The notes under the pieces: generated by a model | What the model was told of the DNA's origin: nothing | What the model saw: the letters and a program-made list of their open reading frames with translations, nothing else | Database searches by the model: none | Made by a program: the position numbers and the translations under genes | Shown: positions 29-12,133 of the stretch, piece by piece | Layout: each line of letters starts with the position of its first letter | How positions within the stretch are numbered: position 1 is the stretch's first letter | Assembly: GCA_030024065.1 (NCBI GenBank) | Contig: JASEIE010000089.1 | Location: 1 to 12,203 of the forward strand | Source of the DNA: Thermodesulfobacteriota bacterium | GTDB lineage: Bacteria; Desulfobacterota; BSN033; UBA1163 | DNA: 12,203 bases | Reading direction: 5' to 3'

Positions 29-46
29 ATAACTTGTTCAAGTTAT
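29..46. repeat. 18-nt palindrome at the break of the transposase remnant
   Basis: Two 8-bp arms, ATAACTTG and CAAGTTAT, are separated by TT. The palindrome overlaps the premature stop of the transposase remnant, just past the point where its protein stops resembling the family. It may be a recombination scar or an IS-end hairpin; no function is shown. The flanking 28 bases are AT-rich and contain nothing else I can name. Confidence 0.4.
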
Positions 47-306
47 TTTGCAACGACTCCTAAGTTCGTAATACCTATCCCTTTTGCAAGAGATTCTTCT
101 TTTCTTGGTACTGCAAGAATATGAACATGATTGGTCATTAAACAGTAAGCCCATATCTCAAAATCCCATTCATCGCTATATTTGCTAAGGATCCTTAAAT
201 AAAATTTTCTATCTTCATCATCGAAAAAGACGGTTTCTCTATTATTCCCACGCTGGGTGATATGATGGGGATAATTGATAGCACAAACTCTTGCTATTCT
301 AGGCAT
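43..306 (-). pseudogene. Truncated REP-associated/IS200-like (Y1, HUH) transposase remnant
   Basis: The 87-residue product matches the N-terminal half of Y1 transposases of the REP-associated tyrosine transposase group. Visible landmarks are the start MPRIARV, HHITQRGNNR (about residues 14-23), and the metal-binding HUH motif H60-V-H62 inside YCLMTNHVHIL. Family members usually run to roughly 150-300 residues and carry the nucleophilic tyrosine in a later helix. Here the match ends near GIGITNL (about residue 82) and a stop follows five residues later, so the tyrosine is missing and the protein should not transpose DNA. I see no convincing ribosome site before the ATG. It reads away from the gemA-like gene and is best treated as a decaying single-gene mobile element. 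Confidence 0.8.
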
Positions 307-349
307 GAGATGAAAGTATTAGAGAAGAGACCAATTGTCAAGAAAAATA

Positions 350-361
350 GGGAAGTGTCCC
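350..361. repeat. Small IS-type hairpin GGGA-AGTG-TCCC
   Basis: GGGA and TCCC pair around a 4-nt loop, 44 bases upstream of the transposase remnant's start codon. Short GGGA/TCCC hairpins beside REP-type transposases can be the sites those enzymes recognise, so this may be the surviving end of the element. That link is inferred from position. If correct, the mobile element extends to about base 370, which argues against starting the next gene before that point. Confidence 0.35.
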
Positions 362-411
362 TAATTTTAGCAAATTTCCCTTTTTTTCCTGATCTGGGTT
401 ATAATAACAGT

Positions 412-864
412 GTGGCTATCGGGCGGAAGAAGAAGGCGGTTGTCCATATTGCAAAAGAGAACCTCCACCTCGATGAGGACTCTTATCGCCAGATTCTGAA
501 AGGGGTGGCAGGCGTGGAGAGTTCGACGCAGTTGACCAGTGAGGGTTTTGAAAGGGTGATGAAACGTTTTCAGGAGATGGGATTTAAGGGCCTTCTCCCC
601 CACCTGTACCATCCCGTGCCAAAGGGCCGGCTCATTCCTGCCGGCAGCCCCCAGGGCCTGGAATCGATCACCTCGGGCCAGAAGGACTTTATCTCTTACC
701 TCCTGGAAGAATTGGATTGGGAGGAAGGACATTACCATGCCTTCTGCCGGCGCATCATCAAAAGACCTGCCCCCCTAACCAAACGGGACGGCCAGAAGAT
801 CATCATCGGCCTGATGGCCATATTGAGAAAGAGGTCCCTATCTCACAAAAGGAGAGAGCTATGA
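412..864 (+). CDS. GemA/DUF1018-like protein (Mu gp16 family)
   Basis: The 150-residue product resembles the DUF1018/GemA family, named for phage Mu gp16, a small regulator reported to alter host gene expression and DNA topology. Family features are the N-terminal helix KKKAVVHIAKENLHLDEDSYRQ followed by a short G-V stretch, a central ERVMKRFQEMGFKG helix, and a C-terminal domain with GQKDFISYLLEEL and a basic tail. The frame is open upstream with ATGs at 262 and 310, but these fall in or beside the transposase remnant. I chose GTG 412 because it gives the usual family length and places the conserved helix near the N-terminus; no strong ribosome site decides this. The stop overlaps the next start (ATGA at 861-864), implying translational coupling. 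No other phage genes are in view, so it is either a domesticated gene or a prophage relic. Confidence 0.7.
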   Translation: MAIGRKKKAVVHIAKENLHLDEDSYRQILKGVAGVESSTQLTSEGFERVMKRFQEMGFKGLLPHLYHPVPKGRLIPAGSPQGLESITSGQKDFISYLLEELDWEEGHYHAFCRRIIKRPAPLTKRDGQKIIIGLMAILRKRSLSHKRREL

Positions 865-2290: not shown

Positions 2291-2316
2291 TAATTACTAA
2301 CAGAAAGGAGGCCCTT

Positions 2317-2880
2317 ATGAAAAGGAAGAGTTTTTACAAGCGGTTCTTTTTGATTTCCCTCTTACTATTCCTCTTTCTTCTTTCCAATGCAGAAGCGAAG
2401 AAAAAAGTGGAATGGGTTGGGAAGGAAACACTCAATTTTACTCTTCCCTCCACCTATGATCGGGTGATCAATTATGCCGATGAGTATTATGGAAAACACT
2501 ATTTGATTATCACCTTCTTCCCGGCTGCCTTCACCCCTCTCTGAACGGGCGAGATGGAGGGCCATCAGAGGAATCTCTCCCTCTATGAGCGCTTCAACGC
2601 CCGGGTCCTGGGCGTCAGTGTGGATGATGTGGCCATATTGAAATACTGGGCGAAAAGCCTGGATTTAACCTTTCCTCTCCTTTCGAATATCACCGGTTTT
2701 CTGGGCGCCTCATTCGGTGTCCAGCCTTCACCTGAGATCAAGGGCTATCCTGTATTCGGGAGACGGACGGTCGTCATCGATAAAAGCGGTATCATCCGTT
2801 ATGTTAAAGACGGATCACCTGACTACAAGGATATTCTCCTCTTTCTCAAAAAACTGAACCAGGAAGGAGGAAAGCCATGA
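2317..2880 (+). CDS. Secreted selenocysteine peroxiredoxin (AhpC/TSA-type), in-frame UGA at residue 76
   Basis: This is one 187-residue protein if the UGA at 2542-2544 is decoded as selenocysteine. ATG 2317 follows the strong site AAAGGAGG by five bases. Residues 1-27 are a signal peptide (basic MKRKSFYKR, a leucine-rich core, cleavage near NAEA/KKK). The thioredoxin fold follows, with HYLIITFFPAAFTPL then U76 and TGEM. In peroxiredoxins this is the PxxxTxxC loop with the peroxidatic cysteine exactly at the UGA. The frame then runs intact for 111 codons through VLGVSVDDVAILKYWAK, FPLLSN and RRTVVIDKSGIIRYV, all typical of AhpC/TSA. No cysteine occurs anywhere else, so this is a one-Sec enzyme without a resolving cysteine. 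The likely role is peroxide reduction in the periplasm with an unknown reductant. A nonsense mutation is the alternative but is unlikely given the position and the intact downstream frame. Confidence 0.85.
2542..2586 (+). promoter_or_regulatory. Candidate bacterial SECIS element at the UGA codon
   Basis: Bacterial SECIS hairpins lie within the coding sequence just 3' of the UGA. One fold pairs 2554-2561 with 2579-2586 (8 bp, one G-U), leaves a 5-nt bulge CCAUC, then pairs AGAG 2567-2570 with CUCU 2575-2578 under a GAAU loop. The loop begins 26 nt after the UGA and opens with G, within the known spacing. A competing fold pairs 2547-2555 with 2573-2581. Both were found by eye without energy calculation. 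Confidence 0.5.
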
Positions 2881-3513: not shown

Positions 3514-3548
3514 AAAAGGGGTGAGAGAAATTATCTCATCCCTTTTTT
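3514..3548 (+). terminator. Strong intrinsic terminator after the peroxiredoxin-lipoprotein unit
   Basis: AAAAGGGGTGAGA (3514-3526) pairs with TCTCATCCCTTTT (3534-3546) for 13 bp including one G-U, around a 7-nt loop, followed by the end of a six-T run. The A-run on the 5' side also gives a U-tract on the opposite strand, so it may work in both directions. Confidence 0.9.
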
Positions 3549-3599
3549 ATTAAAAAGGATCAGAACAAAGCACAGGAGAAACCCGATCAAGGATCCAAG

Positions 3600-4117
3600 A
3601 TATTGTTCAGAGATATCCTTGAGACTATCTGCGTCAAGATCTGTATCATAAATGGCTCCAACCCTTTCTTTTGTTTTATTAAGAATATGGTCGAATTCCT
3701 TTTCGTCCACGCCCAGCGCGATTTTCCCAAAGAGTTGAATGAAACGCCGGTAGGCGTCGTAGGCAAACCGCCCATCCGAGGTGATCTTAATCAATCCTTC
3801 AATGGTCTCGTCATTGAGACCCAGATTGAGGATGGTATCCATTATTCCTGACATAGAGAGGACTGCGCCCGATCGGACAGAAAAGAGGGTTCTGGGGATT
3901 TCCAAATACTTTGCCAGTTTTTTTCCTCAACCTTTTTTAGGTTGGCCTGGACTTCTTCCACCAGACCTTTGGGAAGTCTTTTTTTTGTTCTCATAGTTAC
4001 TGGATACAGGCCTTGGTAGTGACAATAAATCCGGGTGGGACAGGAAGGCCCATATGGGTCATTTCGGCCAGGCCTGCCCCTTTTCCACCGAAGAGTTTTT
4101 TATTAGTACCCTCGCCT
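3600..4117 (-). pseudogene. ppdK: Pyruvate phosphate dikinase fragment, frameshifted and truncated at both ends
   Basis: Read on the minus strand, three stretches in different frames match the N-terminal part of pyruvate phosphate dikinase (pyruvate + ATP + Pi to PEP + AMP + PPi). The first, near 4114-4000, reads [19 protein letters not shown] then [16 protein letters not shown] and hits a stop. The second, about 3990-3905, is the KGLVEEVQANLKKVEEK helix and then EKTGKVFGNPQNP. The third, 3905-3600, reads VRSGAVLSMSGIMDTILNL then ETIEGL, RFAYDAYRRFIQLFG and VDEKEFDHIL. At least three to four small indels fall mostly at A/T runs. The start codon is gone, and the match ends at about residue 200 of a protein normally near 880 residues. 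An open frame continues to 3531 but is no longer PPDK. It is a dead remnant; sequencing error cannot explain the missing ends. Confidence 0.85.
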
Positions 4118-4433
4118 TATTCAAAGAGATAGATCTACTTTGGATTTTCAACAGCATTATGATTTTTATTGAAAATTTCTATTCAATCGACTAATATCTT
4201 TTTTGACTAAAGTTGTAAGCCCCACCTTGTAGTCGGGGGACCTTATATTGGGGGTCAAGGGGATATCCCACTTGACAAGGTAAGCTTAAATACCCCACAT
4301 GCGGAGGCAAGCATCCCACGTAAGTGTACCGCCTGCAGGTTGCAAGTTTACTTTAATAGGCTTTTTAAGAAGAATTCCCTCTTTTTACACATTATAGTCC
4401 CTTTTGATCTAAAGCTGAATAAAGGAAGGTTAC
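4118..4433. other. 316-bp gene-free region with clustered inverted repeats
   Basis: No credible protein is encoded. The left third is AT-rich. Between 4220 and 4281 and again at 4299-4337 there are nested complementary runs: for example TGC(GG)AGGC at 4300-4308 faces GCCTGCA at 4331-4337 with a two-base bulge. The right end lies directly behind the fumarase-beta stop and shows no clear terminator. The region may hold an old IS200/IS605-type end, a small RNA, or only decayed DNA. Confidence 0.5.
4224..4281. other. Possible branched RNA structure or IS end
   Basis: ACCTTGT (4224-4230) is complementary to ACAAGGT (4275-4281). Inside, GACC (4239-4242) can pair with GGTC (4253-4256), and CAAGGGG (4256-4262) with CCC-A-CTTG (4267-4274), leaving a bulged A and an ATAT loop directly stacked on the outer stem. 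An alternative pairs CCCC (4220-4223) with the G-run at 4235-4239, as seen at the ends of some IS200/IS605 elements. The strand of any transcript is unknown. Confidence 0.3.
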
Positions 4434-5120
4434 TTAAAGAGGCTCTTGTTCAGGGGAGGTAATCTCACCTAATCTCTTTAATAAATAAATCTTTTTATCG
4501 CTGTAGAGTTTAGATAGCTCCATGTTGATTCTTTCATTAGCGAGAGACCATAGGTGGTTGCCTTGAGTATCAAAGGCGACGAAAAATGGGCCGAAGTTCT
4601 CCACCTCCAGAATCCACATAGCTTCTGCAATGCCCAGTTCCTCTTTCCAATATACTTCTTTGACCCTTCTTAACCCCTCGCTATAAAGAGCACCGATTCC
4701 ATATCCAACCGATGTGAGATAAACTGCGTTATATTTTTTGAAGTATTGGTAAAAATCTTCATGCATACCTGCCTTTCCAATTATCGCCCGCAAACGATAT
4801 TTTTCAAGCAGCTTCGGAATCCAGGGAGAAAATCTAAAACCAGATGTACAGGTGATGCCTGAGACCCTATATTCATTCGGTCGCACTTCAGCTCCTGCAG
4901 GAGAACTATGCATCATCACGTTATACTTATTAGTAATGTCTACGGGGGGAGGATTCCCTTTGTCAATCACATGGATGCACCATAGAGACCTCCCTGTAAA
5001 GATGCCTCCACTGAGGTAGACGATATCACCCACTCTAAGATCCTTTATGCTTTCTTCGGACAAGGGTATATTTAGTCGTACTTCTCTAAGTTCCAAATCA
5101 TCTAAGGATTCTATTTTCAT
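4434..5120 (-). CDS. Class I fumarase/tartrate dehydratase family hydro-lyase, beta subunit
   Basis: The 228-residue protein matches the C-terminal domain of class I (Fe-S) fumarases, which forms a separate beta subunit in two-subunit enzymes such as TtdB. Visible features are the swivel-domain opening (LDLREVRLNIPLSEE-like, then LRVGDIVYLSGGIFTGR, about residues 28-44), the HSSPAG turn (71-76), IIGKAGM (113-119), and the closing VENFGPFFVAFDTQGN. The usual GPTTS-x-RM loop is changed here to TCTSGFRF (about 90-97), suggesting a substrate other than fumarate. It starts two bases after the alpha stop, with GAGG inside the end of alpha as its ribosome site. It should work only with alpha, adding or removing water across a double bond next to a carboxylate. 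Fumarase, tartrate dehydratase or a novel hydro-lyase cannot be separated by eye. Confidence 0.87.
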   Translation of the reverse strand: MKIESLDDLELREVRLNIPLSEESIKDLRVGDIVYLSGGIFTGRSLWCIHVIDKGNPPPVDITNKYNVMMHSSPAGAEVRPNEYRVSGITCTSGFRFSPWIPKLLEKYRLRAIIGKAGMHEDFYQYFKKYNAVYLTSVGYGIGALYSEGLRRVKEVYWKEELGIAEAMWILEVENFGPFFVAFDTQGNHLWSLANERINMELSKLYSDKKIYLLKRLGEITSPEQEPL

Positions 5121-5122
5121 TC

Positions 5123-6121
5123 CTAAGCCTCTTGAGCTATAGTTTTTCTTCTATAATAAGGGGTAAACCAGTCTGGACTATCTTTATATTCAACCTTATT
5201 TGTCGGGTAAATTCTGGCTGACGCCCTCCTTACGGCATTGCAGTGCTGATGAATAGACATCGGCGGCCCACCCGTATGTCCATAGGCAATCTCTATATGA
5301 ACATCCATAACCGTAACATCTCCCCATAGCCCCATTGCACCGAACATGGTGGAATTGGCTAATTCTTTTAATTCTTCCTCTAAGTCGGCAACATAAGGGT
5401 CTGGATGCCGATCTCCTACCGTCCGAAGTGAGACAGCTTCCCTCCCCAGTCTGAATGATACGTCCTTATTTCCCCCAATCCCGATGCCTACTAAAGAGGG
5501 TGGACAGGCATACCCTCGATGACCATTCACGCTGATGACGTCTAAGAAGAACCTCTTCATTCCATCTATTCCGTCCCCAGGTAGAAGCCACCTGTAATCA
5601 CTTCCATAAAAACCACCCTTGTGGGAGACGGTTATCTCAATCCAATCTACCATGGGCTCAAAGCTATAAAAGACATCTGGAGCAAAAATCCCGAGATTTG
5701 TGGCAGGGTTTTCGTGGGTCAAGGGATGCACCGCATTTGATCTCAAAGGAATGTCTTTAGTAGCCCTCGCTGTAGCCCTTCTAAGAGCTTCTTCCAAAGC
5801 TACAAATCCACCGCGGATTGAAGCTTTATTTCCAACTTTAACATAAAATCGAGGAATACCCGGGTCTGAACAAATAGACAATTTTTGGCTTTCCGCCTTC
5901 TCAAAGTTTTCGATTATTTTACCCAGGACATATTTAGGAAGTTTCTTAGTCTCTCTCTGGAAAATGTCCCTTAATGACTTTTTGGCATCCTCAGGCATTT
6001 TCGTTGCGGCTCTCCAGTGTAAATAATATCCTGCTTCTTCTATGATATCCTGTTTGATAGACACTACTCCCCCAATTATCGGTTGTCCAATAAATTCTTT
6101 CAATAGTTTAAAAATTGCCAA
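5123..6121 (-). CDS. Class I fumarase/tartrate dehydratase family hydro-lyase, alpha subunit
   Basis: The 332-residue protein is the Fe-S catalytic subunit of the class I hydro-lyase family. Three cysteines stand where the family binds its [4Fe-4S] cluster: C84 in SICSDPGIP, C206 in YACPPSLVGIGIGG, and C294 in HQHCNAVRRASA. R128-S-N-A-V-H132 and THENPATN (135-142) match the substrate-site region. The first in-frame start is TTG 6121: a stop lies four codons upstream and no ATG exists before residue 42. AAAGGG is nearby but too close to be ideal, and the family match begins only around V19-V20 (a GTG), so the true start may be internal or a small frameshift may have occurred. Family members are usually 280-300 residues. 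It is separated from the ABC genes by 192 bp and coupled to the beta subunit. Oxygen sensitivity is expected from the cluster type. Confidence 0.87.
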   Translation of the reverse strand: MAIFKLLKEFIGQPIIGGVVSIKQDIIEEAGYYLHWRAATKMPEDAKKSLRDIFQRETKKLPKYVLGKIIENFEKAESQKLSICSDPGIPRFYVKVGNKASIRGGFVALEEALRRATARATKDIPLRSNAVHPLTHENPATNLGIFAPDVFYSFEPMVDWIEITVSHKGGFYGSDYRWLLPGDGIDGMKRFFLDVISVNGHRGYACPPSLVGIGIGGNKDVSFRLGREAVSLRTVGDRHPDPYVADLEEELKELANSTMFGAMGLWGDVTVMDVHIEIAYGHTGGPPMSIHQHCNAVRRASARIYPTNKVEYKDSPDWFTPYYRRKTIAQEA

Positions 6122-6144
6122 ACCCTTTGCTCATTATGCCAACA

Positions 6145-6206
6145 CATGAACTTCATGATTACATTTTTCTACAATACTACCCTATAGTGAAGTTCGAATA
6201 GTTCAT
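6145..6206. promoter_or_regulatory. Repeated GAACTTCA half-sites upstream of the hydro-lyase genes
   Basis: CATGAACTTCATG (6145-6157) is a near-perfect palindrome (6+1+6). GAACTTCA (6148-6155) recurs inverted as TGAAGTTC (6188-6195), followed by TTCGAA and GTTCAT (6201-6206). This clustering in the 192-bp gap suggests an operator and a separate promoter for the hydro-lyase pair. No regulator gene is in view, and I could not fix -35/-10 boxes. Confidence 0.3.
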
Positions 6207-6217
6207 CGCCAAAAACC

Positions 6218-6230
6218 TTCCCAACGGGAA
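6218..6230. terminator. Weak hairpin flanked by T-runs behind the ABC ATPase gene
   Basis: TTCCC and GGGAA pair over a 3-nt loop, with AAAAA at 6211-6215 and seven Ts at 6234-6240. Either strand would give a short stem followed by a U-tract. With only 5 bp, it would at most partly terminate transcription between the ABC and hydro-lyase genes. Confidence 0.3.
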
Positions 6231-6313
6231 CTGTTTTTTTCTTAATTGGGAGTGAATATCTTTTTGGCCAAATCAAATAATTCTTCAATTGTTATCAAGA
6301 TGTCCATTGAGCT

Positions 6314-7435
6314 CTATTCTAATAAACTACTTCGTGTCTTTTTTATTTCCATCTTTTCTGAAATAATAACCACTTTATCAGGGTTAATACACAAATAAAC
6401 CTCCTCTTTTTCCGCACAAAAAGTATCGGTATTAAAATCATGTATGCGAATGATCTCCTCCTCTACTGCTACCAGGTAATCTATGTAATTACCCATAAAT
6501 GTTTTGGATATCACTTTTCCCTTCAACATATTATTCTTTTTAAGGTAATTCGTATAAATTCGGATGTTTTCAGGTCTGATAGAAATGGTAACCTCTTTCT
6601 TATCAGGAAGATCGATGGGTTCATGTAAATAAATTATATCTCCACTTCGAATGAGAACTCCTTTATTCCTGTCGGAATCACACACGATCGTTGCTGGCAA
6701 GAGATTTGTTATGCCGATGAAATCTGCTACTGTGCAACAATTGGGCTTATCGTAAATCTCCTTTGGAGGACAGGATTGCAATATCCTGCCTTCATACATA
6801 AGGCAAATTTTGTCCGATAGTATGATAGCCTCTGCTTGGTCATGGGTTACATAAATAGTGGTGATATTCAATTTGTCGTGAAGCTGCCTAAGTTCAAAGC
6901 GCATGGATTCTCTTAATTTCGCATCCAAATTACTTAAGGGTTCGTCCAAAAGGAGCACATCGGGTTCAGTGGCGATGGCCCGGGCAAAGGCGACCCTTTG
7001 CTGCTGTCCCCCTGAGAGTTGGTGGGGAAATCGATCTGTCAGGTGACCTAATTTAACTAAATCAAGGGATTGGATCGTCCTTTCCTTGGCTTTGCCGACG
7101 GGAACCTTCCTTGCCCTTAAACCGAACATAACATTCTCTAAGACGTTCATATGGGGCCACAATGCATAACTCTGGAATACCATGGACATTTTCCTCTTCT
7201 CCGGGACAATATTGAGGCCTCTTTGGGCAGAACTTATAATTCGATCTCCGACCCGGATCTCCCCTGAATCAGGCTTAAAGAATCCCGCGATCATTCGGAG
7301 TGTTGTCGTCTTTCCGCAACCACTAGGTCCTAAAAGAGTCAGAAATTCCTTGTCTCTGACCGTCAGATTAATATGGTCTACAGCAGCTACTTTCCCAAAC
7401 TTTTTACACAGATTGGATAGTACGACTTCTGGCAT
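6314..7435 (-). CDS. ABC transporter ATP-binding protein (PotA/FbpC/PhnT type) with TOBE domain
   Basis: The 373-residue ATPase drives the importer formed with the two preceding genes. Counting from ATG 7435, Walker A is GPSGCGKT (36-43), the Q-loop glutamine is 88, the signature is LSGGQ (140-144), Walker B is VLLLDE (160-165) and the switch histidine is H198. Residues after about 240 form the C-terminal TOBE-type domain of the MalK/PotA/FbpC group, with [11 protein letters not shown] as the typical strand. The frame can be read back to GTG 7444, but that codon is part of the AGGAAAGG ribosome site, so ATG 7435 with 8-nt spacing is preferred. It begins 14 bases after the permease stop. The substrate cannot be read from the ATPase: this group serves polyamines, iron(III), thiamine, 2-aminoethylphosphonate and others. 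Confidence 0.93.
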
Positions 7436-7449
7436 AGTATACACCTTTC

Positions 7450-9162
7450 CTATAGTTCGACGAACTTAACGGCTCCAAGTCTGACAGCGAGCCAAGTACC
7501 GATGATGACAATGATTACCAATATGAAAGAAAGAGATACGGCTTCGGAAAAATGTCCATCTGAAAATTGAATTAGAGCCATTACCGGAGCCACTTCGGTC
7601 CCAGGAGACCAAACGATCGATGTCATGCTCACTTCCTTCATCACCGAAACAAATACTAACAACCAAGCCCCAATTAGCGTATTCTTGAGAATAGGTAATA
7701 AAATCTTTATCTGAGTTTTGATCCAGGTAGCACCAAAAATCCGTGCAGCCTGCTCCAATTCTTCTTCTATCTGTCTGAATGCGGCTGTTCCTGAACTGGT
7801 TACAATGGGCAAAAATCTTACTACATAGCCCACCAAAAGAATCCAAAGTGTCCCATACAAAGAAAATGGAGGCCTGGAAAATGCCAAAATGAGCCCAAGT
7901 CCGATCACTATCCCGGGAATGACAAAAGGAATAAAAGCAGTTAAATTAAGGGCCTTTGAGCTTACTTGGCCTCCCCTAATAATAAAATAAGAAATGAGTA
8001 TACCAAGGATAACGGCACATACCCCTCCCCAAACTCCGAGTGAGATTACGTTCACGATACTCCTTCGATAAGTTTCATCTTCAAATAGCACTCCTTTTAA
8101 ATGCCTCAACGTTGAATTAGCCAAGGTGTATCCCTTTCCCCAAATATCTATAGTAGCCCCGAAAAGAAGGGTAACCAGTGGAACGATAATCACCACAAAC
8201 AAGAAAGCAAAAGAAATTAAAAGGGCTACATTTTTCCATCTCCCCAAAGGTATAATCTCAATTCTGCTTGCTTTCCCCGTCACGGTAGTAAATCTTCTCC
8301 GACTGAGGTAAGTTTGATTGAGGGTCAATATCACGAGTGTACATACTACTAAAGTAATAGCTAAAATCGCTGCCAAACTAAGGTCTGTGGGGAAAACAGT
8401 AGTGAAAGACCAAATTTGGGTCGTCAGGACGTAAACTCCTGCTGGTCCTCCCAAAAGCATTGCTGGAGCAAATTCGGCCATTGCGTAAGCGAATACTAAG
8501 ATTGTACTGCCCAATATAGCGGGCGCCAGTAAAGGAATGGTGAGTCGCCTTAGAATATAGAATTTTCTACCCCCAAGAATTCTTCCGGCATCGAAAAATT
8601 CTTGATTAAACTGTGCAAAGGCATTGGTAATGAGAATGAAGGCAAAGGGGTAGATGTGAATTGCTTGGATCAACACTACGGGCCAATATCCATAGACATT
8701 AAGATCAAGTTCTATCCCCAAAAAATATTCCAAGATACCATTTCTGGAAAGGAGTAAAACCCAAGACATACATAGAGCATAGGACGGAAGAATATAGGGA
8801 ACGATTAGCCCGATGCTGATTAATTTCTTGAACGGAAGGTCGGTTTTTGCCACCAGATACCCAAAAGGCAGAGCGATGATTAAGCAAATCAGTGTAGTCC
8901 AGGCAGATATGCTCAATGAATTGACCAAAGGCATAACAAGGACACCCCTGAATTCAATTGCCCTGTGAATATTTTCAAAAGTGAAACTCCCTGTTCTCGA
9001 AAGCATACTTTTTTGAAGCATGATCCCATAGGGATAGACAATAAAGATCAGTATAAATAAGGCGGCAATTCCAACCATGATGTGTTCGGTTCTTATATTG
9101 AATAGATAGGCCTTTATTCGGTCCCAAAGAGTAAACCTTATATAATAGGTTTTGCCTTCCAT
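7450..9162 (-). CDS. Fused two-domain ABC permease (FbpB/ThiP-like)
   Basis: The 570-residue membrane protein contains two binding-protein-dependent permease domains in tandem, each with about six membrane helices, giving 12 in all. The two cytoplasmic EAA loops that contact the ATPase are at about 188-212 (EFFDAGRILGG... with TIPLL) and 468-492 (ELEQAARIFGA... with ILLPIL). Such fused permeases are typical of the iron(III)/thiamine/2-aminoethylphosphonate branch, where one polypeptide replaces the usual pair. The N-terminal helix is at about 28-50 and the second half begins near 310. ATG 9162 follows GAGGTAGGA by roughly nine bases. An 82-bp gap with a stem-loop separates it from the binding-protein gene upstream. 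Family assignment is secure; substrate is not. Confidence 0.93.
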   Translation of the reverse strand: MEGKTYYIRFTLWDRIKAYLFNIRTEHIMVGIAALFILIFIVYPYGIMLQKSMLSRTGSFTFENIHRAIEFRGVLVMPLVNSLSISAWTTLICLIIALPFGYLVAKTDLPFKKLISIGLIVPYILPSYALCMSWVLLLSRNGILEYFLGIELDLNVYGYWPVVLIQAIHIYPFAFILITNAFAQFNQEFFDAGRILGGRKFYILRRLTIPLLAPAILGSTILVFAYAMAEFAPAMLLGGPAGVYVLTTQIWSFTTVFPTDLSLAAILAITLVVCTLVILTLNQTYLSRRRFTTVTGKASRIEIIPLGRWKNVALLISFAFLFVVIIVPLVTLLFGATIDIWGKGYTLANSTLRHLKGVLFEDETYRRSIVNVISLGVWGGVCAVILGILISYFIIRGGQVSSKALNLTAFIPFVIPGIVIGLGLILAFSRPPFSLYGTLWILLVGYVVRFLPIVTSSGTAAFRQIEEELEQAARIFGATWIKTQIKILLPILKNTLIGAWLLVFVSVMKEVSMTSIVWSPGTEVAPVMALIQFSDGHFSEAVSLSFILVIIVIIGTWLAVRLGAVKFVEL

Positions 9163-9195
9163 TGTTATAAATCCTACCTCAAATTAGATAAGAGG

Positions 9196-9229
9196 GGAGG
9201 AGAGAGAATGTAACTTTCCTCTCTCCTCC
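9196..9229 (-). promoter_or_regulatory. 11-bp stem-loop between binding-protein and permease genes
   Basis: GGAGGAGAGAG (9196-9206) and CTCTCTCCTCC (9219-9229) pair perfectly around a 12-nt loop. No U-run follows on the minus strand, so it is not a standard terminator. In ABC operons such hairpins often protect the upstream binding-protein mRNA from 3' decay, making that protein more abundant than the permease. That role is inferred from position. Confidence 0.7.
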
Positions 9230-9244
9230 AATACGTCTCTGTCT

Positions 9245-10294
9245 CTATTTTTTCTCCTTTTCCCCTGACAATGTTGTCCACATTTTATGAATATCCCTTT
9301 TGTTCTCCTCTAACCAGGCATCATCAGGGGTAAGTAATTTAAGTTCGCCTAAAATCGGCATCCCTGGCGGAGAGGCAACATCTACTCTTCCAGAATAATA
9401 AAATTCATCAGAGATGATCTTACCCAATTCTGCTGACATTAGGAATTTCTGAAAAAGTTTTCCTGCATTCGGGTTCGGTCCGCCTTTGACTAATGAACTC
9501 GAAGACTGAACGACGATGAGACCTTCCTCTGGAACAACCACCTTGACCGTACCTTTGGGGTAAAGCGGAAACATTGAGATATAAGCCCAAATGCAGGGAC
9601 CAATCTCTCTTTCTCCAGCGGCGACAGTTCTTGCGATATCGGGCGTATCTCTAATAAGTAGGGGATCATTCGCTAATACTTTTTTCCAATAGTCCCAGCC
9701 CCACCCCGGAACATTCAGAAACTGCCCCACGGTAATTAGGGAAGTTGCTGAGTAGAAAGGTGAACCAAGAACAATCCTTTTCTTGTATTTAGGGTCTGTC
9801 AAGGAACGCCATGACGTTGGGGGATCCAGCCCTGCCTTTTTTAATCCTTCTACATTATACCAGATGCCAACGGTATAACTTCTCGGGGTGACCCAATAAC
9901 CGTCAGGATCCCGGAGCTTTTCGTCAAATTTCTGATATTCTTCAGGCGTATATTTCTCGAGGAAACCTTTCTTTTTGAAGTCCCTATAAACGGACAAATC
10001 ACTGACCGTAAGGACATCGCAAAGAACCTTACCCGCTTCCTTTTCCGCCGAGAGCTTTGCCGCGACCACCCCTGTTCCTGAACGAAATATCATCACAGCG
10101 ATTTCCGGATAATGTACCCTAAAGGCCTTTGCAACCGTGTCCATCAGTGGTTTTGGCCAAGCGCCATACCAACCCACCTTCCCCTCTTTAATGGCTGCTT
10201 TCTCCAAATCAGTTTTGGCAAAAACACCAGTTTGAATCCCCAACGTGATCGCCAGTACTACTAACAAACCGACCAATAATTTTAAGTATTTCAT
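9245..10294 (-). CDS. Periplasmic substrate-binding protein of an ABC importer (FbpA/AfuA-type fold)
   Basis: The 349-residue precursor has a signal peptide (MKYLKLL, hydrophobic core, cleavage after VFA at 24-26) and the fold of cluster-D type binding proteins for iron(III), 2-aminoethylphosphonate, polyamines or thiamine. Recognisable parts are EGKVGWYGAW near the mature start, FRSGTGVVAAKL, CDVLTVSDLSVYRDFKKKG, WYNVEGLKKAG, and the closing SLVKGGPNPNAGKLFQKFL. ATG 10294 lies seven bases after AGGAGG; a TTG 18 bases earlier overlaps that site and is not the start. Iron-binding FbpA proteins carry adjacent tyrosines in the second domain. The stretch I align to it (AYISMFPLYPKG, about 237-248) has no such pair; a YY occurs later at 299-300. 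An organic or phosphono-acid ligand is therefore more likely than iron, but this alignment is by eye. Confidence 0.9.
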   Translation of the reverse strand: MKYLKLLVGLLVVLAITLGIQTGVFAKTDLEKAAIKEGKVGWYGAWPKPLMDTVAKAFRVHYPEIAVMIFRSGTGVVAAKLSAEKEAGKVLCDVLTVSDLSVYRDFKKKGFLEKYTPEEYQKFDEKLRDPDGYWVTPRSYTVGIWYNVEGLKKAGLDPPTSWRSLTDPKYKKRIVLGSPFYSATSLITVGQFLNVPGWGWDYWKKVLANDPLLIRDTPDIARTVAAGEREIGPCIWAYISMFPLYPKGTVKVVVPEEGLIVVQSSSSLVKGGPNPNAGKLFQKFLMSAELGKIISDEFYYSGRVDVASPPGMPILGELKLLTPDDAWLEENKRDIHKMWTTLSGEKEKK

Positions 10295-10314
10295 CTTCCT
10301 TCCTCCTTTCAATT

Positions 10315-11205
10315 TTATAGTGTTTTTTGAAACTCGGGGAACTCCCCCCTCACCTCCCTTAATTTTTCCTCTATGAAATTTGGCACGCTCCAGAAATTCT
10401 CAGGCTTTGTCTCAAATTTTTTTCTCAACCCCATTATCATAGACCTTTGGAAGAAATTCAGGGTGCTCCGAGTCATGACCGGGTCAATACCGATCTCCTC
10501 CAATGTCTCAATCGCCTGGACCACCTCATGGTATCGCCTTTCACAGGCCAGTGGATGGGTTTTAATCCAGTTTTCAGCCACCCTTTCAAATGAATTTTCT
10601 CTCATCAAATCCACGATATCCTTCCAAAGGTAATCCTCAATACCTGCACGCCTTCCTGCAATCAGCATTTCCAAAAGAAGGCATTCAACCCCTTTTGAAA
10701 AGATGCTTCGGATCATCTTCACCATGGAAGAATCACCAATTTGCGGCGAAAAATATTTCAGATTAATCAGCCCCAAACGGTTCATCCATCGGGAAAATTC
10801 TTCGGCCTTCTTACCTGAGACGAGAATGGACGCTTTTGAACCGGTTTCCCCAACCGCACTCAGAACTGCGCCTTCAATGAAATTCGCATTCGATTCTTCG
10901 ATAATTCGTGCGATTTTTTTCTTGACGGTTGGTGAAGTTGAGTTCATGTCGGAGTAGGTTTTTTCGAAGTTCAAAAATTTTGCAGCCTCCTGTGCTACCT
11001 CTATGGCTACATGGGATACGACTGTAGATAAGATAATATCGCATGTCTGAATAAGCTCATTGAGAGGAAGAAACGTAATCCATTTCTCCGGTTTCTTATT
11101 CACAATATCGTAGTAGTAAACCTCTGCGCCTTGGGTCTTCATCTCCTTAGAAAAGGCCCTGCCGACCTCTCCAAATCCAATGAATCCAATCCTCTTTATT
11201 TCCAC
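10315..11205 (-). CDS. NAD(P)-dependent beta-hydroxyacid-type dehydrogenase, DUF1932 family
   Basis: The 296-residue enzyme has an N-terminal Rossmann domain with IGFIGFGEVG (6-15; GxGxxG at 10-15) and an acidic residue at the end of strand two (D33), favouring NAD over NADP. DMNSTSP (86-92) and EGAVLSAVGETGSKASILVSG are typical of 6-phosphogluconate/3-hydroxyisobutyrate dehydrogenase relatives. The C-terminal helical domain is DUF1932-like: SSMVKMIRSIFSKGVECLLLEML (159-181), with K163 in the position of the family's catalytic lysine. It starts at GTG 11205, seven bases after GGGAG, and sits between the PEP-mutase gene (22 bp) and the binding-protein gene (20 bp). It should oxidise a hydroxy-acid or reduce the keto form. 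The substrate is unknown; the neighbouring PepM makes phosphonolactate/phosphonopyruvate a testable idea. Confidence 0.85.
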   Translation of the reverse strand: MEIKRIGFIGFGEVGRAFSKEMKTQGAEVYYYDIVNKKPEKWITFLPLNELIQTCDIILSTVVSHVAIEVAQEAAKFLNFEKTYSDMNSTSPTVKKKIARIIEESNANFIEGAVLSAVGETGSKASILVSGKKAEEFSRWMNRLGLINLKYFSPQIGDSSMVKMIRSIFSKGVECLLLEMLIAGRRAGIEDYLWKDIVDLMRENSFERVAENWIKTHPLACERRYHEVVQAIETLEEIGIDPVMTRSTLNFFQRSMIMGLRKKFETKPENFWSVPNFIEEKLREVRGEFPEFQKTL

Positions 11206-11227
11206 TCAAAATCTCCCTTAGATCCTT

Positions 11228-12133
11228 TTATCCGATTAGATACTTTTCTTCGTCTTCTTTCATCTTTGGCACTCCTTGAAGATCGAAGATTCTGTTAACA
11301 GGGACCATCATTTTATCGATGGTATGGATTCCCCCGGATCTCTTTATCTCCTTCAACAGTTCCTGTTGGGCTTTGACGGCAGCTCTCATGGGCTGATTTG
11401 CATAAATGTACAGTTTGACTTTTCCCAAAGTTTCGACAGCCTGACGCGTGAGGGAAGGATAGTTCGTGGGAACTAAAACCAAGGGTACTGAACTATCCCA
11501 ATTTCGCACAAACTCGAGAATCTCGTCAGGGTTACTCGATTTGGAATGGATAAGAATACAATCAGCTCCGGCCTCCACATAACGAAGAGCCCGTTTCATC
11601 GCCTCCTGTTGTCCCCAGCCGGCGATAAGAGCCTCCACCCGGGCAATGACGATAAATTCCCTATTTTTCTGATGGTCTTTGGCTGCCTTTATTTTTCCCA
11701 CAAACTCTTCGATTGGAGCTAAATCTTGTCGGCCACCCTCCAGCAAACTATTGTCCTTAGGGAATTTCTTATCTTCGATCGACATCCCTGCGATACCGGC
11801 TTCTTCAAATTTCTTCACTGCATAGATGACATTGTTTGCGTTGCCATACCCCGTATCGCAGTCTGCAATGATGGGGATGGAGACAACCTCATTCATGCTG
11901 CGTGCAGCTTCACAGTACTGGCTCATCGAAATCAGGTTGGCATCGGGAACAGCAAAGGAGGCGGAAATACATAAACTGCTTGACCAGATAAAATCAAACC
12001 CTGCCTGTTCGATCAATTTTGCACAAAGGGCATCTCCCGCTCCAACACCTACGGCCACCCCAGGTTTTGTTAACATCTCCCTCATCTTTACCAATTTATC
12101 CTTATATGGTGTAGTATCCCTACAACGATACAT
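11228..12133 (-). CDS. pepM: Phosphoenolpyruvate phosphomutase (PEP mutase; phosphonopyruvate/PEP interconversion)
   Basis: The 301-residue protein belongs to the isocitrate lyase/PEP mutase superfamily and carries the PEP-mutase signature EDKx5NS exactly, at E120-D-K...N128-S129. Other active-site stretches match known PEP mutases: DCDTGYGN (91-98, Mg-binding aspartates), ARVEALIAGWG (164-174), HSK (196-198) and VPT (221-223). PEP mutase moves the phosphoryl group between the enol oxygen of PEP and C3 of phosphonopyruvate; equilibrium lies far toward PEP. ATG 12133 follows GAGAGG by seven bases; M17 is a less likely start. It is the first complete gene of the operon. No phosphonopyruvate decarboxylase accompanies it, which is unusual for a biosynthetic pepM and raises a catabolic role. 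Phosphonopyruvate hydrolase is the main alternative. Confidence 0.88.
   Translation of the reverse strand: MYRCRDTTPYKDKLVKMREMLTKPGVAVGVGAGDALCAKLIEQAGFDFIWSSSLCISASFAVPDANLISMSQYCEAARSMNEVVSIPIIADCDTGYGNANNVIYAVKKFEEAGIAGMSIEDKKFPKDNSLLEGGRQDLAPIEEFVGKIKAAKDHQKNREFIVIARVEALIAGWGQQEAMKRALRYVEAGADCILIHSKSSNPDEILEFVRNWDSSVPLVLVPTNYPSLTRQAVETLGKVKLYIYANQPMRAAVKAQQELLKEIKRSGGIHTIDKMMVPVNRIFDLQGVPKMKEDEEKYLIG

What the first reader, a model, noticed from the sequence alone, without database searches (positions are those of the whole stretch)
4434..12133. Operon joining PEP mutase, a dehydrogenase, a fumarase-type hydro-lyase and an ABC importer: possible new phosphonate pathway
The three enzyme types line up as a chemical series on phosphono-analogues of C4 acids: phosphonoacrylate (like fumarate) + water to phosphonolactate (like malate), oxidation to phosphonopyruvate (like oxaloacetate), then PepM to PEP. 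PEP mutase strongly favours PEP, so this would release a phosphonate as a high-energy metabolite without C-P lyase or a hydrolase. The importer's fused permease and binding protein belong to the group that includes 2-aminoethylphosphonate systems. The altered TCTSGFRF loop in the hydro-lyase beta subunit fits a non-fumarate substrate. The gene content is seen; the reaction order and substrates are inference.
Basis: partly seen in the sequence, partly recalled or inferred. Interest (0 to 1): 0.85.

Follow-up and report, generated by a model that had tools for sequence, protein, structure and literature searches.

The report
Import operon feeding backward PEP mutase
A bacterial gene cluster looks like an uptake and breakdown route for a phosphonate in which an enzyme normally used to build phosphonates would run backwards and release the carbon-phosphorus bond as an energy-rich metabolite; five genes fit this reading well, the two hydro-lyase genes beside them much less.

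Summary
The seven genes are real, but split 5 + 2. Five (PEP-mutase-type enzyme, NAD dehydrogenase, binding protein, fused permease, ATPase) are packed with gaps of 2-82 bp; the hydro-lyase pair lies 192-249 bp downstream.

The five-gene block recurs on one contig of a distant genome (L101), without hydro-lyase. Contig-length matches suggest about 21 further contigs with the mutase-dehydrogenase pair. The layout is that of the known phosphonoalanine (pal) operon with a dehydrogenase replacing the aminotransferase. On trees the mutase-type enzyme groups with catabolic phosphonopyruvate hydrolases, yet 41 of 41 sampled clade rows keep Leu48 and Asn122 of the mutases, where the hydrolases examined have Phe and Thr.

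Best reading: import of phosphonolactate or a similar acid, oxidation to phosphonopyruvate, reverse PEP mutase to PEP. All chemistry is inferred; a hydrolase giving pyruvate and phosphate is not excluded.

The phosphonoacrylate step is weakly supported: none of 86 wider-family hydro-lyase loci shows the mutase or dehydrogenase in the DNA fetched; 71 have a succinate-dehydrogenase-like gene, 11 a sulfonate-related one; and the window's clade lacks two arginines kept in all 86.

The parts
11228..12133 (-). PepM-type enzyme, motif EDKKFPKDNS; most likely phosphonopyruvate -> PEP
   Evidence: PF13714; best solved matches: phosphonopyruvate hydrolase 2dua, then PEP mutase 5unc; mutase-type Leu54 and Asn128 in 41 of 41 clade rows; trees
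10315..11205 (-). NAD-type beta-hydroxyacid dehydrogenase (NAD_binding_2 + DUF1932); predicted 2-hydroxy-3-phosphono acid (phosphonolactate) dehydrogenase
   Evidence: model pLDDT 88; best Foldseek matches 3qsg, 1i36, 4ezb carry no assigned substrate; Asp33 after strand 2 invariant in 34 rows
9245..10312 (-). ABC importer binding protein (PhnS2/AfuA-like; start probably the internal ATG at about 10294, after a GGAGGA)
   Evidence: AfuA phosphate-contact positions keep a hydroxyl, sugar-contact positions are lost
7450..9162 (-). ABC importer fused double permease (PhnU2-like)
6314..7444 (-). ABC importer ATPase (PotA/PhnT2-like)
5123..6121 (-). Fe-S hydro-lyase alpha subunit (Fumerase); likely start GTG at 6064; role in this pathway unproven
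   Evidence: PF05681; C84, C206, C294 invariant in 17 aligned rows
4434..5120 (-). Fe-S hydro-lyase beta subunit (Fumerase_C), loop ITCTSGFRF
   Evidence: PF05683; aligns to 7xky_B, 2isb, 5dni

Best explanation
The five packed genes (12133-6314) are an import-linked phosphonate-catabolic operon, built like the pal (phosphonoalanine) operon but with a dehydrogenase instead of the aminotransferase and a mutase-type instead of a hydrolase-type C-P enzyme. The ABC importer takes up a 2-hydroxy-3-phosphono acid, most simply phosphonolactate (inferred). The DUF1932 dehydrogenase oxidises it with NAD+ to phosphonopyruvate (inferred). The PepM-type enzyme turns phosphonopyruvate into PEP, the favoured direction (more than 500-fold, in print), which pulls the dehydrogenase step and keeps the C-P bond energy as PEP (inferred from residues, not assayed). 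The hydro-lyase pair 192-249 bp downstream may feed phosphonolactate from an unsaturated or dihydroxylated phosphono acid; that part is only a suggestion (about 0.2).
For: Gene packing. Cousin block L101: PepM 60%, binding protein 34%, permease 31%, ATPase 48%, dehydrogenase 36% identical, in a row, with an Ldh_2 gene (cut by the contig end) 1.7 kb further whose best NCBIfam model is L-sulfolactate dehydrogenase (119 of 500 bits). Pal-type blocks L117 and L118: importer of the same kind + aminotransferase + phosphonopyruvate hydrolase (the L117 enzyme passes the cut-off, L118 misses it by 3 bits). Trees: window clade + L101 + hydrolases together, 99/97 and 93/84, apart from decarboxylase-linked mutases. 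Of 8 columns parting 5 hydrolases (two nearly identical) from 11 mutases, the window clade has the mutase letter at 5, the hydrolase letter at 1, its own at 2; Leu48 and Asn122 positions mutase-type in 41 of 41. EDKXXXXXNS is the published PEP-mutase mark (PMC6697681, passages seen). Its Gly47->Ser also occurs in L103 and L104, both beside decarboxylases over cut-off; the L103 mutase is over cut-off too, L104's was not scanned. PepM and dehydrogenase homologues share 22 contig lengths in lists of 119 each (chance mean 0.57, maximum 4); one (1357) is too short for both genes. Binding protein: AfuA phosphate contacts Ser37/Thr150 align with Thr/Thr, sugar contacts His205/Asp206/Glu229 with Ser/Met/Val.
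Against: NCBIfam scores the hydrolase model above the mutase model, both under cut-off. The clade has Gln at position 240, where 6 of 11 mutases and 4 of 5 hydrolases have His. No dehydrogenase of this clade has a known substrate that I found, and a 48% relative (L122) sits beside an HpcH/HpaI aldolase gene, so substrates may be diverse. Importer models are far below their AEP cut-offs, and most solved kin of the binding protein are labelled iron-binding (3 of the 5 at E <= 1e-9). Only one five-gene cousin was found: dehydrogenase hits at the set limits in 3 of 395, 2 of 6, 2 of 23, 0 of 148, 1 of 247, 1 of 5, 1 of 12 and 1 of 394 genomes (samples overlap). The block was seen only in G179; other hits were read in short flanks or single contigs and L115 not at all. 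The hydro-lyase linkage is seen only in the window.
Confidence: 0.45

Rival explanations
1. Same pathway, but the C-P enzyme is a hydrolase: phosphonopyruvate + water -> pyruvate + phosphate, so the cluster is a phosphonolactate version of the pal pathway with no PEP made.
For: Best NCBIfam model and best solved match are phosphonopyruvate hydrolase; the clade groups with the hydrolases; shares Gly268 with them.
Against: Keeps Leu, Asn and Ala (41 of 41) and Gln (39 of 41) where all 5 hydrolases examined have Phe, Thr, Gly and Arg; 54 bits below the hydrolase cut-off.
Confidence: 0.22
2. The substrate is not a phosphonate: the PepM-type clade acts on another 2-oxo acid and the set handles a sulfonate or carboxylate.
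For: The wider hydro-lyase family has an SDHA-like neighbour in 71 of 86 loci and at least one of six sulfonate-related markers in 11 of 86 (plasmid annotations); a dehydrogenase relative pairs with an HpcH/HpaI aldolase gene.
Against: 12 of 13 positions that I recall as the active site of PEP mutase are kept; the Cys of the lyase motif (KKCGF, KRCGH) is absent; no sulfonate gene among the window genes identified.
Confidence: 0.2
3. Biosynthesis: PEP -> phosphonopyruvate -> phosphonolactate, as in natural-product clusters that pull PepM with a 2-hydroxyacid dehydrogenase.
For: That route is in print (PMC12871164, passage seen); the motif is the mutase one.
Against: Binding-protein-dependent importer in the same block and in L101; tree position with catabolic enzymes; no tailoring or export gene recognised in the window, which ends 70 bp upstream of the first gene.
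Confidence: 0.07
4. A separate question: the hydro-lyase pair belongs to an unrelated function and is a neighbour by chance or recent joining.
For: 0 of 86 wider-family loci show PepM or the dehydrogenase (loci of 3 to 21 kb); six nearest alpha relatives' contig lengths occur in neither list of 119; G179 with the five-gene block has no alpha homologue at E <= 1e-10; 192-249 bp gap.
Against: Same strand, directly downstream; its clade has altered conserved residues, as expected of a changed substrate. The homologue lists show the best 120 of 3012 and of 410. Contexts of the six nearest relatives could not be read.
Confidence: 0.5

Closest known systems
pal operon for phosphonoalanine (Variovorax sp. 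Pal2; palA hydrolase, palB aminotransferase, palC-E transporter, palR; PMC10574752 passages seen)
   Same: ABC importer of the same kind + enzyme making phosphonopyruvate + PepM/hydrolase-family C-P enzyme in one block (L117, L118)
   Different: Dehydrogenase instead of aminotransferase; mutase-type residues instead of hydrolase-type; no LysR gene seen, but the window ends 70 bp upstream
PEP mutase (PepM), EDKXXXXXNS family
   Same: Motif and 12 of 13 active-site positions checked
   Different: Importer and dehydrogenase neighbours, tree position with hydrolases, no decarboxylase seen beside it
Phosphonolactate branch of phosphonate biosynthesis (2-hydroxyacid dehydrogenase pulling PepM; PMC12871164 passage seen)
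   Same: PepM plus hydroxy-acid dehydrogenase
   Different: Opposite predicted direction; DUF1932-type dehydrogenase; importer present. The sequences of the biosynthetic dehydrogenases were not compared
Two-subunit class I fumarase / L-tartrate dehydratase (7xky, TtdAB)
   Same: Family profiles, three cysteines, Thr and Arg of the beta loop and a GK(G/A)GM lysine (their roles recalled, not from a call)
   Different: Below the equivalog cut-offs; Arg->His in alpha and Asp->Ser after the (A/G)R of beta relative to 7xky
SDH-like + hydro-lyase clusters with sulfonate-related genes (plasmids L001, L002, L003, L006)
   Same: Hydro-lyase alpha about 50% identical
   Different: SDH-like genes and sulfite handling; no PepM

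Membership tests
PEP mutase (PepM) | EDKXXXXXNS motif | tested here: met
   EDKKFPKDNS in the window; Asn position in 41 of 41 rows
PEP mutase (PepM) | NCBIfam TIGR02320 curated cut-off | tested here: not met
   301 of 320 bits
PEP mutase (PepM) | interconverts PEP and phosphonopyruvate | not testable with these tools
   needs an assay
Phosphonopyruvate hydrolase (PalA) | NCBIfam TIGR02321 curated cut-off | tested here: not met
   320 of 374 bits
Phosphonopyruvate hydrolase (PalA) | Thr in place of the mutase Asn122, Phe in place of Leu48 (as in the 5 hydrolases compared) | tested here: not met
   Asn and Leu in 41 of 41
pal-type operon | ABC importer + phosphonopyruvate-forming enzyme + C-P enzyme in one block | tested here: inconclusive
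   importer and PepM-family enzyme present; that the dehydrogenase forms phosphonopyruvate is inferred
pal-type operon | PLP aminotransferase PalB | tested here: not met
   none among the window genes identified; the window ends 70 bp upstream of PepM
2-aminoethylphosphonate importer (PhnS2/U2/T2 type) | curated cut-offs of TIGR03261/03262/03265 | tested here: not met
   121/393, 183/593, 336/458 bits
class I fumarase / tartrate dehydratase | three cluster cysteines in alpha | tested here: met
   C84, C206, C294 invariant in 17 rows
class I fumarase / tartrate dehydratase | equivalog cut-offs (fumarate hydratase, TtdA/TtdB) | tested here: not met
   208/276 and 151/365 for alpha; 126/269 and 106/264 for beta; the general alpha model TIGR00722 is passed (221 over 101)
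3-phosphonoacrylate hydratase (proposed) | conserved linkage with PepM and dehydrogenase | tested here: not met
   0 of 86 wider-family loci; the nearest relatives' contigs could not be read

The most novel reading that the evidence does not exclude
PEP mutase is used backwards as the C-P-cleaving enzyme of a dedicated import-and-oxidise pathway (phosphonolactate -> phosphonopyruvate -> PEP), so that a phosphonate is a source of PEP, carbon and phosphorus together without C-P lyase or a C-P hydrolase; in the window a fumarase-type hydro-lyase may extend it to phosphonoacrylate.
Probability: 0.38. Interest if true: 0.85.

Novelty: new variant of a known kind. Interest (0 to 1): 0.62.

Why it matters
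PepM serves as a marker gene for phosphonate production (so in PMC9381506, and its motif is used to pick mutases in PMC6697681; passages seen). If a clade of mutase-motif enzymes is catabolic, such counts would include consumers. In the catabolism review PMC10574752 the word mutase occurs twice, neither time for a breakdown route. A mutase route would keep the bond energy as PEP, which should suit energy-poor anaerobes, and it is testable with two small soluble enzymes and a binding protein.

Tried and rejected
Lines that led nowhere: no genome is held for the window. A scan of viral contigs with a PepM homologue gave no relative. Sampling genomes with the dehydrogenase gave only the G179 cousin as a block (samples overlap). 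The contexts of the six nearest hydro-lyase relatives (P0002-P0007) could not be read; only contig lengths are shown. Rfam at gathering thresholds and the tRNA scan of the window were empty. Promoter- and terminator-like sites were near chance (19 against 15.5, 9 against 7.3) and 6065-6325 folds no better than shuffles (z -0.03), so a separate transcript for the hydro-lyase pair is neither shown nor excluded. The dehydrogenase model points to proteins without assigned substrate and, lower, to imine reductases and a 3-hydroxyisobutyrate dehydrogenase.

Considered and dropped: Gly47->Ser as evidence against mutase activity (it also occurs beside decarboxylases). The altered beta loop as evidence for a phosphonate substrate (shared in outline by the wider family). 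The two lost arginines as support for phosphonate binding (if anything they speak against a more highly charged substrate).

Rows dropped: the tree left out L105, L087, L088, L095 (duplicates or fragment). One search left out also L091-L094, L096 and the long-branched L116. In one search L112, L113 and L116 were not in the mutase set; L112 and L113 bore the label mutase although one search found no EDK motif in them. Clade samples: 40 of the 119 listed homologues plus the window, 13 and 8. Of 20 plasmid records listed for alpha (87 matched) six were fetched; one of them (L004) carries no annotation, and L005 shows no sulfonate gene in its annotation.

Full report
What is there. Seven frames lie on the minus strand from 12133 to 4434: a PEP-mutase-family enzyme, a NAD_binding_2 + DUF1932 dehydrogenase, an SBP_bac_6 binding protein, a 570-aa permease with two permease domains, an ABC ATPase, and the alpha and beta subunits of a fumarase-type Fe-S hydro-lyase. 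From the coordinates the gaps are 22, 2, 82 and 5 bp within the first five genes, then 192 bp (249 bp if alpha starts at the GTG at 6064, as in the 313-aa database form P0001), then 2 bp.

Are the genes linked elsewhere? I compared the listed relatives of PepM and of the dehydrogenase (119 each without self, from the best 120 of 3012 and of 410). 22 contig lengths from a shared source occur in both lists, against a mean of 0.57 and a maximum of 4 for lengths shifted by up to 200 bp. One of them (1357 bp) is too short for both genes, which leaves 21; this is an inference from lengths, not a reading of contigs. Three of the 21 are under 2.7 kb (2461, 2462, 2631), so there the two genes must be close neighbours. 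On the other strand, 490 bp further, begin an MFS gene and then an Ldh_2 gene cut by the contig end, whose best NCBIfam model is L-sulfolactate dehydrogenase (119 of 500 bits). G179 has no homologue of the hydro-lyase alpha subunit at E <= 1e-10.

The hydro-lyase does not show this linkage. The 86 loci with wider-family alpha subunits are the 80 best of 283 relatives in GTDB genomes and 6 of 87 matching plasmid records; they are 3 to 21 kb long. None has a PepM or dehydrogenase match at the limits used. 71 have an SDHA-like and 64 an SDHB-like gene. The six nearest relatives of the window's alpha subunit (76-86% identical over the alignment) lie on contigs whose lengths are in neither list. 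The dehydrogenase list reaches down to 57% identity, so a close dehydrogenase on, say, the 50-kb Nitrospirota contig should have shown; but the contigs themselves could not be read.

What the C-P enzyme is. By profile it falls between two families: hydrolase 320 bits of 374 needed, mutase 301 of 320. On a tree of 39 rows the window clade, L101 and four plasmid enzymes of the hydrolase kind form one group (99/97). With the solved enzymes added and long rows removed (30 rows) the group stays at 93/84. A tree that holds the window clade and L101 with the mutases, leaving the hydrolases out, is 27 log units worse (p-AU 0.025, near the usual limit). So its kin are catabolic. Its residues are those of a mutase: of 8 columns that separate 5 hydrolases (2dua and L117 nearly identical) from 11 mutases, the window clade (41 rows) has the mutase letter at 5, the hydrolase letter at 1 and its own at 2. 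Of 13 positions that I recall as the active site of the mussel enzyme, 12 are kept in 41 of 41 rows, among them Leu48 and Asn122, which are Phe and Thr in the 5 hydrolases. Asn122 belongs to the published EDKXXXXXNS mark of PEP mutases (PMC6697681, passages seen). The thirteenth, Gly47, is Ser; that also occurs in two Neomarinimicrobiota enzymes next to phosphonopyruvate decarboxylases that pass the curated cut-off. Outside that list the clade has Gln at position 240, where 6 of 11 mutases and 4 of 5 hydrolases have His.

What the layout says. L117, a Variovorax plasmid whose hydrolase is nearly the solved Pal2 enzyme, and L118, from Pseudosulfitobacter, carry binding protein, ATPase, fused permease, aminotransferase and hydrolase in one block (L117 passes the hydrolase cut-off, L118 misses it by 3 bits). 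That is the pal operon described for phosphonoalanine (PMC10574752, passages seen). The window and L101 have the same plan with a hydroxy-acid dehydrogenase in the aminotransferase's place. An alcohol in place of an amine, oxidised to the same keto acid, gives phosphonolactate as the simplest substrate. Phosphonolactate is made from phosphonopyruvate by 2-hydroxyacid dehydrogenases in known biosynthesis (PMC12871164, passage seen).

The binding protein. Its best solved match is 4r72, which I take to be the AfuA of PMC4546632 (passages seen), a hexose-phosphate binder. A pyridoxal-phosphate-binding protein is third of the five matches at E <= 1e-9; the other three, and most of the 18 at E <= 0.001, are labelled iron-binding or iron-transport. 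At AfuA's phosphate contacts Ser37 and Thr150 the window has Thr and Thr; at the sugar contacts His205, Asp206 and Glu229 it has Ser, Met and Val. A numbering offset of two fits all five AfuA positions, but the alignment is distant and gapped near the histidine.

The dehydrogenase keeps Asp33 after its second strand in all 34 rows aligned, which by general Rossmann-fold knowledge favours NAD.

Direction. The equilibrium favours PEP more than 500-fold (PMC12871164, passage seen). With an importer in the block the sensible direction is inward: uptake, oxidation, and mutase to PEP. This keeps the C-P bond energy, where the pal hydrolase gives it away. The hydrolase rival differs only in the last product and is not excluded.

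The hydro-lyase. Three cysteines of alpha are invariant in 17 rows, and the beta-loop Thr and Arg and the GK(A)GM lysine align with those of solved fumarases; their roles are recalled. At two positions that are Arg in 86 of 86 wider-family loci the seven-member clade of the window has Ala and His; 7xky has Val and Arg there. In the window's own beta subunit Ser stands where the wider family mostly has Glu, Asp or Ile after the (Y/F)T(A/G)R stretch (75 of 85 loops printed). The substrate has therefore probably changed, but fewer arginines do not point to a more charged one.

The wider family itself is instructive. Plasmid loci L001, L002, L003 and L006 put it with SDH-like genes and, variously, with sulfite exporters, sulfite dehydrogenases, a methylmalonate-semialdehyde dehydrogenase, a sulfolactaldehyde-reductase-like and a sulfolactate-dehydrogenase-like gene. 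Such markers are in the minority: at least one of six (TauE, YeiH, SoxC, NIPSNAP, sulfolactaldehyde reductase, Ldh_2) in 11 of 86 loci (counted). A discussion in PMC11489063 (passage seen) cites a thesis in which 3-sulfopropionate is degraded via sulfoacrylate and sulfolactate. Whether the window's clade does it with phosphorus is open; I give it about 0.2.

Searches behind the statement that I know of no such route in print: (open-licence library only), and the passages read. None that I saw described a catabolic PEP mutase or a phosphonolactate importer, 30 of 104 papers were listed, and subscription papers were not searched.

Noticed in passing
window 2311-2880 (+), TGA at 2542-2544: A peroxiredoxin-like frame (AhpC-TSA match in its 2554-2880 part) has an in-frame TGA where the peroxidatic Cys stands in the motif as I recall it (FFPAAFTPL-U-TGE), with a hairpin about 10 nt downstream (z -1.81, 8 of 200 shuffles as good): a likely selenoprotein.
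   Followed up: partly
L001, L002, L003, L006 and other loci: A two-subunit fumarase-type hydro-lyase family has SDHA-like neighbours in 71 of 86 loci and sulfonate-related ones in 11 of 86: a candidate sulfoacrylate hydratase in 3-sulfopropionate breakdown, perhaps with malonate semialdehyde + sulfite as products where an MMSDH-like gene is present (21 of 86).
   Followed up: partly
   Followed up: yes
L122 71-1735 (-): A 48% relative of the dehydrogenase directly upstream of an HpcH/HpaI aldolase gene, in a genome (G004) whose best PepM-family match has a lyase motif.
   Followed up: partly
L007 about 10001-10951 (+): A wider-family alpha subunit with no beta-subunit match in the 16-kb locus, downstream of an NMT1-type ABC importer and a gene that by eye resembles an acyl-CoA dehydrogenase.
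   Followed up: no
window 43-864: IS200-like transposase fragment (-) and a GemA-like (phage Mu) frame (+) near the window's left end.
   Followed up: no
window 3531-4120 (-): The 3531-3905 frame and the stretch beyond it read, by eye, like a broken piece of a pyruvate phosphate dikinase gene; Pfam gave no match at E <= 0.001 for the frame.
   Followed up: no
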